Source: a virus. Taken from it: 47,807 bases of DNA. Every line of letters begins with the position of its first letter. Position 1 is the first letter of the stretch. The stretch spans positions 1 to 47,807 of the IMG/VR virus record IMGVR_UViG_3300021168_000046, one strand, 5' to 3'. The notes under the pieces are model-generated. The model was given only the letters and a program-made list of their open reading frames with translations, searched no databases and was not told the DNA's origin. The translations under genes were made by a program, and so were the position numbers. Of this stretch, positions 1-47,807 are shown piece by piece.

Positions 1-128
1 GTTCAGGAGATCGTCGAGGTCATCGACGTTCGAGTCATTGGTCGTGGTGCGCGAAGCTTCGGCAATCTGCGACTGCGTCGCCGTGTCGGAATTGGTCGGC
101 CCCATATTGGCTTCCTGGAAGCCAACCA
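1..128. repeat. Terminal direct repeat, left copy
   Basis: Bases 3-128 are identical to the last 126 bases of the window. Base 2 differs (t here, g at the right end) and base 1 matches. The repeat lies inside the portal coding sequence, which stays in frame when the ends are joined. This is what a circular assembly with an overlap of about 127 bases produces. A genuine short terminal redundancy of the packaged DNA is the alternative. Confidence 0.95.
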
Positions 129-1887
129 CCCGCAGCGTGTCCTCGAAATAGGGCGAGACGTCGTACAGCGCCGGATTGATCTCTGGCCCAGTGAAGGCTT
201 GCAGGAGATCCCCGACTTTCTGGCCGGGTTGCAGGCCGTTCAACTCAAGAATGGCGTTCGATGGATGCGATTCGAGCTTCTCGACATCCTCCGCATCGAG
301 CGCGCCGGCGCTGACCACCGTCTTCGGGCGAGCGGCTCGACGATGCTCGCGCATGCCCTGGCGAGCGGTGTTGTAATCAAGCTGCATGTCCTTCATCAGC
401 CGCACGTCCGAGGGCGGGAAAATATCGTCCTCGTGGTCGGTTTCGTTGAAGGTCAGGGTGAACCAGGGCCAGAAGCGTTCGAGCGGCGTGTCGGGCGCGC
501 CAGGCTCGCGCATAAAATCCGGGTAGCCGTCGCAAACGACATACACGAGCCCGTCTTTGCGGTTGTAAATCTCCCAGATGCAGCAGCACTGCTTGTCGTC
601 GCCAAGCCCCTTCTCGCGATCGTTCGGCCCGAGCTGCATCAAACCATTGGCCCGCACGCCGGCGTTCATGCCACCGTCCGGCCGACTGTAGGAGATGTAA
701 TTTTTGCCGACGTCGCGACCGTAAATTTCTTTCACTTCGTTGGGGCTGAGAATGTATTCCTCCGCCACCCAGTCGGAGCCGAGGAAACCGCGCAGATGAA
801 TGCACTTGGTGTCGGGGATGATCGAGAACGAGCTGGGGTAATCGTACGTCAGTCCCTCGTGAGCGATGAACTCAACCTCGCTCTGCAGATCCTGCACCAT
901 CAAGCGCAATTGTTCGGCTTCAGCGCTATCCGGATCACTCTCGTCGTCGGCGATATCCGCTGCGAGACGTTCGAGAGTCCCGAGGCGCTCATTGATGTCG
1001 GATAGCTTGGCGATCACGTCAGGGCGCTTCTGCATCACCCGCTCGAACCCGAGCTTGACGTAAGCGACGCCGACCGTCAGCGCCCGCCGCACCGTCATCT
1101 TCATCAATTGCTTGAACGGGTGGAGCTGCTGACTGACCTGGTAAGCGTAGAGCAGCTCCAGCGTCTTGGCGATCTTGTCGAGTAACTCCGTTTGCTGTTT
1201 GACCTGGCTGGCGTCCTGGATGATCGCCATGCCCTGCTGCAGCATCTGCGGCAGCATCGGGTTGGCCCCTGGAGGAGCAACCCCCAACCCCGGGGGCGCG
1301 CCAGGGGGTCCGCCGGGCGCTGGAGGCCCTGGCGGGGCTCCAGGCAGGCCAGGAGGCCCCATCGGCGCATTCATACCGGGCGGAGCCCCAGGAGGCGCTG
1401 GCGGCGCTCCCATGGTCGCGCCGGCCAGCCCGCCGCTCTGCATCGCCATCTCGCCGGCTTGCTGGATCGCCTGCAGGCTCTGCTCGGTGCCGTCCCACAC
1501 CGTGTTGAGGATCATCTCGCGCCGCTTGGCGACCGCCTTCGGATTGCGCGCGTACAGGAACGACACCCGCTGCGTCACCTCGCGCAGGGTGATGTTGGCG
1601 ACGTACCTTTTCTCTTTGGGATTCTTTGACCATTGCTTGCCGAGGCAGAAGTCTTGGTCCTCCTTCATCCGATCGAAGGCCGGCTTCCAGTGCTTCTTGG
1701 CGTGTTTGACTTCGGTGCCCCAGGCTTTGACCAAAGCCTTACGCGCCGGCGGCGGGTCCGGCCGCTCACGATCGATCATCTTGGCGTCGGCTTCGCCTCG
1801 CTGCAGAATCTGCGCGCCGCTAACGCCCTGCGGCGTGCCGAATAAACCCTGCACCGCCGCTTGGGTCGGATCTGTAGGACCAGGCAT
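1..1887 (-). CDS. Phage portal protein, N-terminal 629 codons (continues at the right end of the window)
   Basis: The portal is the dodecameric ring at the capsid vertex through which DNA enters and leaves and on which the tail is built. The frame is open from ATG at 1887 to base 1 and joins, on the circle, the frame ending at 47128; the whole product is about 812 residues. Visible family features are an N-terminal charged region, a segment of the type YARNPKAVAKRR near residue 115, aromatic-rich middle blocks, and a stretch near the left edge containing SDTATQSQIAEASR. Residues about 155-208 are an unusual Pro-Gly-Ala-rich, collagen-like insertion. The ATG shares its A with the TGA stop of the preceding small gene, implying translational coupling. 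Terminase upstream and scaffold/capsid downstream support the call. The assignment is by family resemblance. Confidence 0.88.
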   Translation of the reverse strand, partial: MPGPTDPTQAAVQGLFGTPQGVSGAQILQRGEADAKMIDRERPDPPPARKALVKAWGTEVKHAKKHWKPAFDRMKEDQDFCLGKQWSKNPKEKRYVANITLREVTQRVSFLYARNPKAVAKRREMILNTVWDGTEQSLQAIQQAGEMAMQSGGLAGATMGAPPAPPGAPPGMNAPMGPPGLPGAPPGPPAPGGPPGAPPGLGVAPPGANPMLPQMLQQGMAIIQDASQVKQQTELLDKIAKTLELLYAYQVSQQLHPFKQLMKMTVRRALTVGVAYVKLGFERVMQKRPDVIAKLSDINERLGTLERLAADIADDESDPDSAEAEQLRLMVQDLQSEVEFIAHEGLTYDYPSSFSIIPDTKCIHLRGFLGSDWVAEEYILSPNEVKEIYGRDVGKNYISYSRPDGGMNAGVRANGLMQLGPNDREKGLGDDKQCCCIWEIYNRKDGLVYVVCDGYPDFMREPGAPDTPLERFWPWFTLTFNETDHEDDIFPPSDVRLMKDMQLDYNTARQGMREHRRAARPKTVVSAGALDAEDVEKLESHPSNAILELNGLQPGQKVGDLLQAFTGPEINPALYDVSPYFEDTLRVVGFQEANMGPTNSDTATQSQIAEASRTTTNDSNVDDLDDLLN

Positions 1888-2099
1888 CACCGCCCATCCT
1901 TCGCTTGCGCAACCAGTTCCTGCAAAAGATCGTCGAGCGTGTCACCATGCCCGGTCGCATAACTATGCTCGATCATCCATGCGGCGACCGCTTCGCGCAC
2001 AATAATCTCAAGCTCTTCAGGCGAGGGACCAAACAGCCCTTTGAGGCCGTTCACCACCGCGACAACTTTCGGGTCGGCCGCCATCATTTCACCAGCCAT
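1887..2099 (-). CDS. Small hypothetical protein between terminase and portal
   Basis: A protein of about 70 residues with a helical, acidic C-terminal half (LDDLLQELVAQAKDG) and no membrane segment. It overlaps the end of the large terminase gene, and its stop overlaps the portal start, so it is embedded in a coupled packaging operon. The start is uncertain: ATG at 2099 and ATG at 2087 are both possible, and an in-frame ATG also lies at 2120. Its position suggests a small packaging or portal-assembly accessory, but I recognise no family. Confidence 0.7.
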   Translation of the reverse strand: MAGEMMAADPKVVAVVNGLKGLFGPSPEELEIIVREAVAAWMIEHSYATGHGDTLDDLLQELVAQAKDGR

Positions 2100-12020: not shown

Positions 12021-12587
12021 TTAAATCGCCGATCGTGCAGACCGCGGCTTGCGCATGCCTAACAGCGACAGAAAACCAAATCCCAATGCCAACATGGCCC
12101 ATGTCCCAGGCTCCGGCGTCGACAAGGCGGTGATCGTGCCGTCGACCGCGATATGGATCGGCGAGCCTCCGCTGACGCCGCTGATCTCGGCGAAATAAGC
12201 GCCGGCGCTGAGCACGTCGGGCGCGACCGTCGCCTCCTGCCCCCCGAGCACATTGACGATCGGCGAGCTTTCCAGGAACGCGCCCGCCGGAATGAACAAG
12301 GGTCCAAGACCCGTCGAGGTATGGGTGTCCAGCTCCAGGACGCCGCCGGTGATGCGTCCAGGGCCGATCGCGCTGTCGCTCATCGACACCGTCACGATCT
12401 CGGTCGTCGGCAGGGTGAACTCGAAGAATTCCTGAAACCCAATGCCGCTGCCGGGCGTGTCTTCAGCCGGCAGCGCCAGCGATTCATTGAACACCGCGCC
12501 AATGTTCTCGACGCTGATCTGCGCCGCCTTGGCCGGCCCAGCGCCGATCGCGGCGAGAAGCGCAGCCGTCAGGTAAAATCTATGCAT
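12021..12587 (-). CDS. Secreted PEP-CTERM (PEPxxWA) sorting-signal protein
   Basis: The 188-residue product has a signal peptide (hydrophobic core YLTAALLAAIGAG, cleavage likely after AKA near residue 21). A beta-rich body follows, with QEFFEFTLP near residues 52-60 and LSAGAYFAEISG near 126-137, reminiscent of FxDxF-type PEP-CTERM proteins. The tail is classical: TPEPGTWAMLALGFGFL, with PEP at 158-160, a hydrophobic helix, then a basic cluster. In bacteria such tails are recognised by exosortase, which handles exported surface or matrix proteins. I see no exosortase here, so the host would supply it. GAGG lies 10 bases before ATG 12587. It is most unusual for a phage and is probably a lysogenic-conversion gene. 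Confidence 0.9.
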   Translation of the reverse strand: MHRFYLTAALLAAIGAGPAKAAQISVENIGAVFNESLALPAEDTPGSGIGFQEFFEFTLPTTEIVTVSMSDSAIGPGRITGGVLELDTHTSTGLGPLFIPAGAFLESSPIVNVLGGQEATVAPDVLSAGAYFAEISGVSGGSPIHIAVDGTITALSTPEPGTWAMLALGFGFLSLLGMRKPRSARSAI

Positions 12588-44167: not shown

Positions 44168-45277
44168 CTATTTGATCTCAATCACAAGGGAGGAGTTGCG
44201 CTGAGTAGCGACCATCTGCCCGGTTGACGTGATCGACTTGTAGAGGACGAACTGATTCGCCGGCCGTGACGGCGTGTGGTCCTTCCGCCATTCGTCGGTC
44301 ATCTGCACCAGGAAGATCTTCTTCGGGTCGAACCAATAGCAACGCTTCGATAAGCCGAGATCGTCGAGGCTCGGGTCGTACTGGAAGGTCGTGCCCATGT
44401 ACTTCAATTCGCCGACCGAAACGTCGCGCGAATTGGAGAAGCCTTGCATCGAGTAATTGCCGTTCGCCCTGACCTCGATCTCCATCGCGCCGAGAAAGTC
44501 GGAGCCGCACAGCGCCATCGTCGGCTTGCCGCCATAGCGGATGAGCTGGCGATATTCGCTCTGCAGCATCGTAATCAGCGCGCCGCCATTGGTCGGATCG
44601 GACTGGATCGAATCCCCACCATGCACCGCCAACCCCGGCGTGCCGGTGACCTTGAGGCCAAACGCCGTGGTGCGAGCACGGTTGCGCCACCAGGCATTGT
44701 TGGCCAGCGATTGATCGAGGCCGCCGACCGTGCCGATCGAGGGGTCTTGCGAGATCAAGAAGCGCATGCCGGCCAGCGCCTTGGCGTCGGTGGTGCCGTC
44801 GCCCCAGAGCAGACCATTCATGCCGCGCGCATATTGCTCGCCCAGCTCGAAGAGTTTGTCTTGGAATAAGTTGACCAAGACAGTTTCGTCGCGCTCGCTG
44901 TGCTCGGTGGTGTTCTCACCATTAGTATCGACTACGCTTATACCATCCATTTTCAATTCGGTATGAGTAAGCGTCAAGCCGATATGGTGTTCTCTCCAAG
45001 GATAGTTGCCCCGAACGATATTCGCCGGAGTAAAAAATCCCACAGTATCATTGTGAGTATAGCCTTTGACGACGTCATTACCTGAGCCGTCACCGAACTG
45101 ACCATGCAACGCAACCGAGATGTTGCCCTTGCCGCCAGGGAATTTCTTCGGATCAGTTTCCGCCCACTTCAGGAGCGGCTTGTCTTGCAGGGTCTGGTAG
45201 AACTCTTCCGGCCGGCTCCAGTAATAGTCGAGCGCGGCATTGGCGATATTGGTGATTTCTCCGGCTGTGAAAGCCAT
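44168..45277 (-). CDS. Major capsid protein, HK97-like fold
   Basis: Three hundred and sixty-nine residues. The start FTAGEITNIANAALDYYWSR, then PGGKGNISVALHGQFGDGSG, the long central helix region with LFQDKLFELGEQYARGMNG, LLWGDGT, and the C-terminal YMGTTFQYDPSLDDLGLSKR, CYWFDPKKIFLVQ and STGQMVATQRNSSLVIEIK are a pattern shared by podovirus capsid proteins. No protease-cleaved delta domain is visible, consistent with the separate scaffold gene. It lies between scaffold and head-tail genes. Confidence 0.92.
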   Translation of the reverse strand: MAFTAGEITNIANAALDYYWSRPEEFYQTLQDKPLLKWAETDPKKFPGGKGNISVALHGQFGDGSGNDVVKGYTHNDTVGFFTPANIVRGNYPWREHHIGLTLTHTELKMDGISVVDTNGENTTEHSERDETVLVNLFQDKLFELGEQYARGMNGLLWGDGTTDAKALAGMRFLISQDPSIGTVGGLDQSLANNAWWRNRARTTAFGLKVTGTPGLAVHGGDSIQSDPTNGGALITMLQSEYRQLIRYGGKPTMALCGSDFLGAMEIEVRANGNYSMQGFSNSRDVSVGELKYMGTTFQYDPSLDDLGLSKRCYWFDPKKIFLVQMTDEWRKDHTPSRPANQFVLYKSITSTGQMVATQRNSSLVIEIK

Positions 45278-45305: not shown

Positions 45306-46361
45306 TCAACGCGATCGCTCTATTGCGAAATGAATCGCCTCCTTGAGACTCTTCGGTTCGGTCCGAGCGCCGTTGACCCGATTGATGCTGCTCGGAACCT
45401 GATGCGTACCCCGTGGACTCGGCATGAAACGCGAAGACATCGCCTTCGCCCGCTCGTAAGCCTGTTTGGCAATCTCGACGGCTTCGGCTGGCGACCGCGG
45501 CGGCCCGCGCTCATGCACGACGGCGTGCAGCAGCTCCCTCACAACGGGTTCTGTGCGCGCGTAGTCGGGGTCGGATCGTCGAACCCCTTTTTCCCAGTCG
45601 GCGACCGCACCCGCCACTGAAGCCTGGAATTGCTGCACGGCTTCAGCGTGGTCGCGTTGAGACGTCTCCTGCGTCACCCGAGCGAGCTGCCCTTGAGCGA
45701 GTTGCTGCTGGGCTCTCACCTGGGCGGTGTACCGTGCCGCGTCCGCGGTCATATGCCCGCCCTGGACCGCCGCTTGGAGGTCAGCCGGGAGCTGTATGCC
45801 GAGGCTCTCCTGCGCCAATTTGACGTAGGGCGCGACGCCCTCCAGGAACGTCCTGAAGTCGCCACGTCGCATCGCCGCGGCCAGATCCAGCACGAGCCCG
45901 AAATCTTCCTTGGCGATGTCCGCCTGTTTCAGGAAGTTCTGCAGCGCTTGCGTCGTCTGGGCCTGAGCTTCGAGCGGCGCGATCTGGGACCGGAGGCCCT
46001 TAATCTCGGCTCGAAACTCGTCGATGCGTTTTCGCGTGCGCGGTGAGAAAGCGTCTACTTCCGCCTGGGTAAGCGGTCCTAAATCCTCTTTCGACTGCGC
46101 GCCAGGAGCTGCCGACTCTCCTGACCTTGAGACGCCACGTTCGTCGCCGGGACCAGGGTGCGCTTCCCTACGGGGAGCGGCCTTACGGACGACGTCGAGC
46201 AGCGACTCGCGGCTCTCGGCCTTTTCGCCGGGCGGGGTTGACGATTCCCTCGATACGTCGGACGAGGCTGGGGTTGAGGCAGCATCGCCTGGAGCTTCAC
46301 CGCCAGCCGGCGCGGGCGTCGAAGCTGATTCATTTGCGACGATGGACGATTCGTCAGCCAT
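45306..46361 (-). CDS. Scaffolding protein
   Basis: Three hundred and fifty-one residues, acidic and Ala/Gln/Glu-rich. A disordered N-terminus (SESASTPAP-type, ~100 residues) is followed by a coiled coil (KRIDEFRAEIKGLRSQIAPL, EAQAQTTQALQNFLKQADIA) and a helical middle (YTAQVRAQQQLAQGQLARVT), ending with a basic region that could touch the capsid. This composition and placement immediately upstream of the capsid gene are those of scaffolding proteins that shape the prohead and then leave. Confidence 0.85.
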   Translation of the reverse strand: MADESSIVANESASTPAPAGGEAPGDAASTPASSDVSRESSTPPGEKAESRESLLDVVRKAAPRREAHPGPGDERGVSRSGESAAPGAQSKEDLGPLTQAEVDAFSPRTRKRIDEFRAEIKGLRSQIAPLEAQAQTTQALQNFLKQADIAKEDFGLVLDLAAAMRRGDFRTFLEGVAPYVKLAQESLGIQLPADLQAAVQGGHMTADAARYTAQVRAQQQLAQGQLARVTQETSQRDHAEAVQQFQASVAGAVADWEKGVRRSDPDYARTEPVVRELLHAVVHERGPPRSPAEAVEIAKQAYERAKAMSSRFMPSPRGTHQVPSSINRVNGARTEPKSLKEAIHFAIERSR

Positions 46362-46421
46362 TTAGTTTTTACGTCCCATGGGTTGGGGGTTGTGCCGCAT
46401 TTCTGGCAAACACGCAACACC

Positions 46422-47138
46422 ATGCAGTTTTATCTCGGCATCCATCAGCCTTCCGACGCCAAGTATCTCGACCGGGTATTCGTCAGCGTCACTCGGCTGA
46501 GCGGCCCCAAGGGCCGCAAGCGCAAGTTCACCGACCAACCCTGGATTATGGATTCAGGGGCGTTCACGACCATCGCCAGGCATGGCGGCTACCCAGAACC
46601 GCCGGCCGCCTACGCAGAACACATCCGCCGCTGGGCGGCCCCAAACCTGGTCGCCGCGGTGGCGCAAGATTTCATGTGCGAAGAGTTCATGCTGGCCAAA
46701 ACCGGCCTGACGCTCGCCGACCACCAGCGACTGACAATCGAGCGTTACGACGAGCTGCGCCGAGAAGACACCGCCGGCGTCCTCATCATGCCGGTCTTGC
46801 AGGGTTATGCCCCGGACGATTACGCCCGCCACGCCCTCGCCTATGGCGACCGGCTGGCGTTAGGCGCTTATGTGGGCGTCGGCAGCGTCTGCAAACGCAA
46901 CAGCCGCCCTGCGGCTATTGTGGCCGTTTTGGAGGCAATCAAACATGCGCGTCCTGATCTTCGACTGCACGGTTTTGGCCTCAAGACCACAAGCCTGGCG
47001 GTCAAAGAAATCCACGACCACCTTGAATCCGCCGACAGCATGGCTTGGTCGTTCGCCGCCCGCCGGCAAGGGCGCAACCAAAACGATTGGCGCGAAGCAG
47101 CAGCGTTCGTCACCACGATCGAAACCCTCAGTGCGTAG
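46422..47138 (+). CDS. DpdA/queuine tRNA-ribosyltransferase-like enzyme
   Basis: A protein of 238 residues with TGT-superfamily signatures: YLGIHQPSDAKYL at the start, WIMDSGAFTTIARHGG with the DSG(A/G)F motif (44-48), AQDFMCEEFMLAKTGLT, MPVLQGYAPDDYA (LQG at 126-128), ALGAYVGVGSVCKR (150s), LHGFGLKT and ADSMAWS (204-210). In the family, base exchange puts a 7-deazaguanine into nucleic acid; phage DpdA members modify DNA. The start is ATG 46422; in-frame codons upstream lack a ribosome site. Length is short compared with full TGTs (~370), as in small phage members. I see no preQ0-making genes. It is transcribed against the late block, and its end overlaps the portal by 11 bases. Confidence 0.87.
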   Translation: MQFYLGIHQPSDAKYLDRVFVSVTRLSGPKGRKRKFTDQPWIMDSGAFTTIARHGGYPEPPAAYAEHIRRWAAPNLVAAVAQDFMCEEFMLAKTGLTLADHQRLTIERYDELRREDTAGVLIMPVLQGYAPDDYARHALAYGDRLALGAYVGVGSVCKRNSRPAAIVAVLEAIKHARPDLRLHGFGLKTTSLAVKEIHDHLESADSMAWSFAARRQGRNQNDWREAAAFVTTIETLSA

Positions 47139-47807
47139 GCCCGGTCAACCGCCCCATGCCGGGCGTCGGCATCGCCGGGCCTGAACCCTGCGGCGGCACC
47201 GGCGGCGGGAAGCTGCCGCCTGGCCGCGGATTCTGCGGCGGGTTCTGTTCGCCGGCCGGCCCCTGCATCTGCGGCGACTTCGGCGTCGCTCCGGCCGCCG
47301 GCGTCGCCACCTGGCCGACGCCAGGCGGTCCAGCAGGCCCATGCGCCATGGTGTTCATGGCCACGATCGAAGGCAGCGGCGACTTGAAGGCTTGGGTGAG
47401 GTCGAGCTTGTCATCGAGGCGATGCAGGAGATCGCGCGCCAAGAACTCGGGGTCGATGCCAGGGATCTGCATCACCAGGGGGTAAATCTTCTGCGCGTTG
47501 GCGATCTGTTGCGCCTGGTTCGGGTTGCCCGAGCTACCGGCCTCGATCTCCAGCCAAACCTCTTCGCTGATCTGCTGCCGCGTCAGATCCGGCCAAACCG
47601 CGCCGGGGCCGACGATGCGCTTCACCGTCGCTTCGCTGACGTTCGAGAACAGGAGCTGCCCGCCATAGCGGGCCAGATGGGTCAGGAGATCGTCGAGGTC
47701 ATCGACGTTCGAGTCATTGGTCGTGGTGCGCGAAGCTTCGGCAATCTGCGACTGCGTCGCCGTGTCGGAATTGGTCGGCCCCATATTGGCTTCCTGGAAG
47801 CCAACCA
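47128..47807 (-). CDS. Phage portal protein, C-terminal part (continues from position 1)
   Basis: This is the rest of the portal frame that enters at base 1. The final 126 bases duplicate the start of the window, so the joined gene counts them once. It contains TVKRIVGPGAVWPDLTR, helices around IANAQKIYPLVMQIPG, DLLHRLDDKLDLTQAF, and a Pro/Gly-rich tail (residues about 745-812) similar in kind to the internal insertion. The stop at 47128 overlaps the end of the DpdA-like gene on the other strand by 11 bases. Confidence 0.85.
   Translation of the reverse strand, partial: VGFQEANMGPTNSDTATQSQIAEASRTTTNDSNVDDLDDLLTHLARYGGQLLFSNVSEATVKRIVGPGAVWPDLTRQQISEEVWLEIEAGSSGNPNQAQQIANAQKIYPLVMQIPGIDPEFLARDLLHRLDDKLDLTQAFKSPLPSIVAMNTMAHGPAGPPGVGQVATPAAGATPKSPQMQGPAGEQNPPQNPRPGGSFPPPVPPQGSGPAMPTPGMGRLTGPTH
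47680..47807. repeat. Terminal direct repeat, right copy
   Basis: Identical to bases 3-128 over 126 bases; position 47681 is g where position 2 is t. Joining the copies gives a circle of about 47,679 bp and a continuous portal gene. Confidence 0.95.

What the first reader, a model, noticed from the sequence alone, without database searches (positions are those of the whole stretch)
46422..47138. Lone DpdA/TGT-like gene: likely 7-deazaguanine DNA modification without its own precursor pathway
The enzyme's family inserts a preQ0-type base into nucleic acid, and DpdA-type phage enzymes protect DNA from host nucleases. No folE, queD, queE or queC-like gene is present in this complete genome, so the host's queuosine pathway would have to supply the base. 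Its length is shorter than typical full-length TGTs, and it sits between scaffold and portal on the opposite strand, so it may have its own promoter and timing.
Basis: partly seen in the sequence, partly recalled or inferred. Interest (0 to 1): 0.75.

Follow-up and report, generated by a model that had tools for sequence, protein, structure and literature searches.

The report
Lone DpdA-like base-swapping enzyme in phage
A temperate phage has picked up, as one cleanly inserted gene, a DpdA-family enzyme that probably swaps guanine in DNA for a guanine look-alike made by the host; lone genes of this kind are already known from hundreds of phages, and their product has not been shown.

Summary
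The gene is real: 238 aa, 46422-47138 (+). It belongs to Pfam DpdA (PF23859, E 2e-41). Its high-confidence model (pLDDT 95) is closest to the solved DNA preQ0 insertase DpdA (7ui4, Z 19.5), nearly tied with tRNA-guanine transglycosylases. The active-site residues are invariant in 109 relatives, including the histidine aligned with DpdA H196. The genome is complete (126-bp end overlap). It lacks GTP cyclohydrolase I, PTPS/QueD, radical-SAM and QueC genes, so "lone DpdA without precursor pathway" stands. This is not new: Hutinet et al. 2019 defined such phages as a group. The protein falls in the Orion-type subfamily, not the one from phages with proven deazaguanine DNA (CAjan, 9g, Rosebush type). 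Orion DNA was unmodified, though its host makes no preQ0. New here: the gene is a single-ORF insertion between portal and scaffold, absent from all 66 comparable relatives. It carries no visible promoter. Some unrelated phages of this subfamily encode a short gene of PF02592, the QPTR/YhhQ transporter family, beside dpdA. 28 of 36 bacteria carrying the window's branch encode QueC, against 11 of 38 in the actinobacterial branch. Best reading: host-fed deazaguanine insertion into DNA; chemistry and expression are untested.

The parts
46422..47138 (+). dpdA-like gene, 238 aa, TGT/DpdA fold; D44 (DSGAF), D83, Q127, C157, R159, H183, K188, D205, W209 invariant
   Evidence: PF23859 2.2e-41, PHROG_1279 2.3e-61, alignment of 109 relatives, model pLDDT 95.2, best PDB match 7ui4
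46424..47126 (.). inserted segment: closest phage relatives lacking dpdA are homologous up to about 47126 and again from about 46424, so the insert is essentially the dpdA ORF
   Evidence: blastn to L187, L189, L190, L192, L195, sequences at the junctions, 66 of 66 relatives empty
45306..46361 (-). scaffold-like gene, diverging from dpdA across a 60-bp gap
   Evidence: 36% identical to the protein between major capsid and portal of Microcystis phage Mae-Yong1326-1; weak PHROG head scaffolding match
47128..47681 (-). portal gene, C-terminal part, ending tail to tail with dpdA (11-bp overlap)
   Evidence: 58% identical to the Mae-Yong1326-1 portal
1..1890 (-). portal gene, N-terminal part, joined to 47128-47681 across the circular join
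44168..45277 (-). major capsid protein, used to find relatives of this phage
   Evidence: PHROG major head protein 1.7e-35
47682..47807 (.). terminal overlap identical to 3-128, shows a circularly permuted complete genome
29397..30635 (+). tyrosine integrase: the phage is temperate
   Evidence: PF00589 7.9e-19

Best explanation
A single-gene DpdA-family DNA-guanine transglycosylase acquired as a moron. Shown: family, fold, conserved active site, absence of the precursor genes from the complete genome, single-ORF insertion in the late operon. Inferred: during infection or lysogeny the enzyme takes a 7-deazaguanine base (most likely preQ0) from the host's queuosine pathway and exchanges it for guanine in DNA, probably at a low level as in Salmonella phage 7-11 rather than the ~30% of G seen in CAjan, hindering restriction enzymes that read guanine N7. 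The exchange would run through attack of D205 (TGT D280 equivalent) on C1', with D44 (TGT D102 equivalent) as acid/base.
For: PF23859 DpdA far over cut-off. Model closest to the DNA preQ0 insertase DpdA 7ui4, ahead of or tied with archaeosine and queuine TGTs. Profile alignment to 9g DpdA E 2.6e-8, with DSGAF, H196=H183 and the DS..W motif in register. Active-site residues invariant in 109 sequences. No queC over cut-off in 40 relatives' records. In 4 of 41 lone-DpdA records a PF02592 gene is present, each time beside dpdA (chance about 1e-5), and more cases were found in prophages; PF02592 is the family of the preQ0/preQ1 transporter QPTR/YhhQ (PMC11130926), which points to a deazaguanine substrate. 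28 of 36 bacteria carrying the window's branch have QueC. Salmonella phage 7-11, a lone-DpdA phage, had trace dADG.
Against: The only DNA measured for this subfamily's type (Orion) had no deazaguanine, and mycobacteriophages keep the gene in a host without the pathway. The window has no transporter and an unknown host. No promoter was found. Substrate DNA versus RNA cannot be told from the fold: Z 19.5 and 19.3 are tied.
Confidence: 0.55

Rival explanations
1. The enzyme is a DpdA-fold transglycosylase whose substrate is not preQ0 (another purine, or guanine excision/exchange on host or competitor DNA), which is why it persists in phages of hosts without the queuosine pathway.
For: Orion DNA unmodified and M. 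smegmatis has none of the genes; 390 Mycobacterium phage records carry homologues; 27 of 38 hosts of the actinobacterial branch lack QueC; subfamily split from the proven DpdAs with long branches.
Against: PF02592 genes beside dpdA in several lineages, in both branches; preQ-pocket motifs kept; the window's branch sits mostly in QueC-positive hosts.
Confidence: 0.15
2. The gene is a recent insertion that is idle in this genome: no promoter came with it and no fixed precursor supply exists, so it modifies nothing here.
For: Insert equals the ORF, starts at or next to ATG, no sigma70-like promoter; absent from all 66 relatives incl. portal 97% identical; junction not found in other contigs.
Against: ORF intact; the upstream strip may hold a promoter of another type; other insertions use the same site.
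Confidence: 0.17
3. A phage tRNA-guanine transglycosylase that alters host or phage tRNA decoding.
For: Same fold as TGT, tied scores; many records annotate it as queuine tRNA-ribosyltransferase.
Against: No Pfam TGT match, only DpdA; the branch lacks the zinc-site cysteines; no C-terminal RNA-binding extension; DpdA-specific His present.
Confidence: 0.1

Closest known systems
Lone-DpdA phages, third group of Hutinet et al. 2019 (Mycobacterium phage Orion, Salmonella phage 7-11)
   Same: DpdA homologue, no folE/queD/queE/queC; the window protein shares PF23859 with Phipps, a phage of genus Pegunavirus (about 39% identity)
   Different: Window branch lacks the C-terminal Cys/His cluster, sits mostly in QueC-positive hosts, single-gene insertion in a temperate phage with a Mae-Yong1326-1-like late module
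Phage DpdA of CAjan, 9g, Rosebush type (phrog_7068), proven deazaguanine DNA
   Same: TGT-like core, DSGAF, His 196 equivalent, DS..W motif; profile E 2.6e-8 to 9g
   Different: Different profile family, no cross-match of PF23859; those phages carry the precursor genes; window protein about 80 aa shorter than 9g DpdA
Bacterial DpdA (PDB 7ui4, DNA preQ0 insertase)
   Same: Best structural match, Z 19.5 over 225 residues
   Different: 16% identity, 238 aa against 413 aa; no dpd cluster around the gene
Sinorhizobium phage phiLM21 gp25 with gp26
   Same: 53% identical lone DpdA of the same branch
   Different: phiLM21 has a PF02592 transporter-family gene right after dpdA; the window has none

Membership tests
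DpdA (PF23859) | Profile score over the curated cut-off | tested here: met
   142.2 bits, cut-off 27
DpdA (PF23859) | TGT-like fold and conserved catalytic Asp residues plus the DpdA His196 equivalent | tested here: met
   Model pLDDT 95, 7ui4 Z 19.5; D44, D83, D205, H183 invariant; H183 aligned to 9g H196
DpdA (PF23859) | Inserts preQ0-type base into DNA | not testable with these tools
   Needs LC-MS; Orion negative, 7-11 trace dADG in the literature
CAjan/9g/Rosebush-type phage DpdA (phrog_7068) | Belongs to the same sequence family as proven phage DpdAs | tested here: not met
   P0001 to phrog_7068 only E 0.0047; PF23859 misses CAjan, 9g, Dp-1, 7-11, nt-1 and Arbiter; phrog_7068 hits CAjan, 9g, Dp-1, Arbiter, not Phipps
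Lone-DpdA phage group (Hutinet 2019) | dpdA present, preQ0 biosynthesis genes absent | tested here: met
   No QueC, PTPS, radical SAM, GTP cyclohydrolase I in a complete genome
tRNA-guanine transglycosylase | Pfam TGT profile and zinc-binding cysteines | tested here: not met
   No TGT match at E 1; no cysteine after the catalytic motif in P0001, cysteine cluster only in the actinobacterial branch
tRNA-guanine transglycosylase | Acts on tRNA G34 | not testable with these tools
   Structure scores tie DpdA and TGT

The most novel reading that the evidence does not exclude
The PF23859 lone-DpdA branch is a separate 'scavenger' kind of DNA modification: instead of making preQ0 it uses host base, or imports it with a dedicated mini PF02592 (QPTR-family) transporter encoded beside dpdA in some phages, and spreads as a one-gene cassette; in hosts without any supply it may use a different base.
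Probability: 0.3. Interest if true: 0.6.

Novelty: new member of a known kind. Interest (0 to 1): 0.4.

Why it matters
Lone DpdA genes sit in hundreds of sequenced phages, yet their product is unknown, and the one mycobacteriophage tested was unmodified in a host that makes no precursor. The window's branch lives mostly in bacteria that do make preQ0, and some of its members carry an adjacent gene of the preQ0/preQ1 transporter family, so it makes the open question (do lone DpdAs modify DNA with borrowed base?) directly testable in laboratory strains.

Tried and rejected
Single-sequence and profile searches of PDB sequences found no true relative; only the fold search did. MetJ and MCM5 matches are sub-threshold noise. 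A tblastx synteny comparison gave mostly short frame-noise matches and was replaced by protein-against-DNA comparison. My codon-bias gene caller missed dpdA in many loci, so neighbour statistics were redone from all ORFs. The association of the PF02592 gene with QueC-negative hosts was examined and is inconclusive: window branch 1 of 3 with the gene are QueC-positive against 27 of 33 without; actinobacterial branch 4 of 11 against 7 of 27. Defence-system library: no match. Orion and Rosebush records are not held; Phipps (genus Pegunavirus) and Arbiter (species Rosebushvirus rosebush) stood in; that Orion is a Pegunavirus/B1 phage rests on my own knowledge. The reviews by Cui 2023 and de Crecy-Lagard 2024 could not be read, so parts of the transporter link may already be described there. 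An assembly chimera as source of the dpdA segment was considered: the intact ORF and precise edges speak against it, reads were not available.

Full report
OBSERVATION. The ORF 46422-47138 (+) encodes 238 aa. It matches Pfam DpdA PF23859 at E 2.2e-41, 142 bits against a cut-off of 27, and PHROG_1279 at 2e-61. tblastn finds homologues in 399 phage records, 390 of them Mycobacterium phages. The pattern scan of IMG/VR gave 162 relatives and that of species genomes 152. Against its four closest relatives dN is 0.18-0.21 and dS 0.9-1.3, so it is a constrained protein gene. The contig ends overlap by 126 identical bases; the portal gene runs across that join. The genome is therefore complete, about 47,679 bp, and carries a tyrosine integrase, so it is temperate.

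NO PRECURSOR PATHWAY. Six-frame searches of the whole record with QueC, PTPS/QueD, Radical_SAM (QueE superfamily), GTP cyclohydrolase I and the PF02592 transporter family found nothing, with positive controls ringing. Being alone is a property of the subfamily: none of 40 records with close homologues has a QueC match over the cut-off.

WHAT THE PROTEIN IS. Across 109 diverse relatives D44 (DSGAF motif), D83, Q127, C157, R159, H183, K188, D205 and W209 are invariant. A profile of these aligns with DpdA of phage 9g, whose DNA insertion activity is published, at E 2.6e-8. H183 falls on 9g H196, the histidine reported for DpdA and missing from DpdA2, and D205 falls on the DS..W motif. The AlphaFold model is confident (pLDDT 95.2, pTM 0.91). 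Its best solved match is 7ui4, the DNA preQ0 insertase DpdA (Foldseek 4e-7, Z 19.5), followed within less than one Z unit by archaeosine TGT (19.3) and then queuine TGTs. So fold and active site are those of the TGT/DpdA superfamily, while DNA or RNA as substrate is not decided by fold. The TGT numbering (D102, D156, Q203, D280 for D44, D83, Q127, D205) is my motif reading from established knowledge, not a computed superposition. The C-terminal Cys/His cluster seen in actinobacterial members is absent in the window's branch, which explains part of the short length.

WHICH SUBFAMILY. PF23859 matches the window, phiLM21, Phipps (genus Pegunavirus, the B1 cluster to which Orion is assigned from my own knowledge) and Beezoo. 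It misses CAjan, 9g, Dp-1, Salmonella 7-11, nt-1 and Arbiter, a member of species Rosebushvirus rosebush. phrog_7068 shows the mirror image: it hits CAjan, 9g, Dp-1 and Arbiter, not Phipps. In the tree the proven group and the PF23859 group separate with full support on very long branches, so exact depth is unsure. Hutinet et al. 2019 (PMC6884629) already described phages with only dpdA as their third and largest group, suggested host-made or imported precursor, and measured two: Orion without modification, 7-11 with a trace of dADG. The finding is thus a new member of a known kind, in the subfamily whose chemistry is least settled.

SUPPLY OF THE BASE. Of the 74 loci whose genomes were searched, bacteria carrying the window's branch have a QueC at E below 1e-20 in 28 of 36, against 11 of 38 for the mainly actinobacterial branch (Fisher 3e-5). 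The host of the window phage itself is unknown. The commonest recurring neighbour of dpdA is a short membrane protein; phiLM21 gp26 and the L010 neighbour match PF02592 (Vut_1), the family of the preQ0/preQ1 transporter QPTR/YhhQ, while the seed sequence from L140 did not reach the Pfam threshold on its own and is linked by sequence similarity. Four of 41 lone-DpdA virus records have a PF02592 match over cut-off, always within 500 bp of dpdA (chance about 1e-5). Its relatives also stand next to dpdA in prophage-like loci of Alphaproteobacteria, Dehalococcoidia and several actinobacterial genera. Hutinet et al. saw phage YhhQ homologues but no correlation with a group; adjacency to PF23859 genes is what I add. 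Whether the gene goes with QueC-negative hosts could not be shown.

HOW IT GOT THERE. Relatives of the phage found through the major capsid protein show an empty site: 66 of 66 loci that hold both portal and capsid lack dpdA, including one with 95% identical capsid and 97% identical portal C-terminus. Homology to these relatives stops at about 47126 and resumes at about 46424. The insert is the ORF itself: the start codon sits at the junction and the stop lies within portal codons. The four nearest dpdA relatives (73-77% identical) lie in other phages; one of them, L005, shares a distant replication module with the window but has dpdA inside that module. In cousins the same portal-scaffold gap ranges from 19 bp to 2.75 kb and holds other genes, for example a radical-SAM-like protein in L197 (Pfam score just under its cut-off), so it is a cargo site. 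The Pegunavirus Phipps likewise carries dpdA against the direction of its late genes. No sigma70-type promoter was found and none came with the insert; expression is an open question.

MECHANISM AND LIKELIHOOD. I judge it near certain that this is a TGT/DpdA-fold enzyme with intact active site; about 55% that it inserts host-supplied 7-deazaguanine into DNA; 15% that it uses another base or target; 17% that it is idle in this genome; 10% that it acts on tRNA.

Noticed in passing
L083 8771-9298; L033, L052, L059, L010, L125, L140, L143, L169, L184 next to dpdA: Short PF02592/QPTR-like membrane protein genes adjacent to lone dpdA in unrelated phages and prophages, a candidate importer of 7-deazaguanine bases.
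   Followed up: partly
portal-scaffold gap, window 46362-47127 and L186-L265: Variable cargo site in this phage lineage: gap from 19 bp to 2.75 kb, with different inserted genes in different relatives (L197/L200: radical-SAM-like protein plus a 375-aa protein without Pfam match).
   Followed up: partly
window 12021-12587 (-): 188-aa phage ORF with a C-terminal PEP-CTERM sorting motif (PF07589, E 4e-5), unusual for a phage protein.
   Followed up: no
window 3-128 and 47682-47807: 126-bp identical ends: record labelled linear is a complete circularly permuted genome, probably missed because the first two bases differ.
   Followed up: yes
L085 4747-5514 (Microcystis phage Mwe-JY25): dpdA homologue loses homology after residue 192 and resumes in another frame, so the catalytic D205 motif is out of frame (frameshift or sequencing error).
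   Followed up: no
L153, L157, L161 and other actinobacterial loci: C-terminal Cys/His cluster (C-x-x-H-x-N-C-A-N-C type) present only in the actinobacterial branch of PF23859, suggesting loss of a zinc site in the other branch.
   Followed up: partly
window 46383-46423 and L187: Strip upstream of the scaffold gene is 97% conserved with L187 and, on the minus strand, opens a frame starting MVLRVCQKCGTTPNPWDVK (CxxC); meaning unknown.
   Followed up: no
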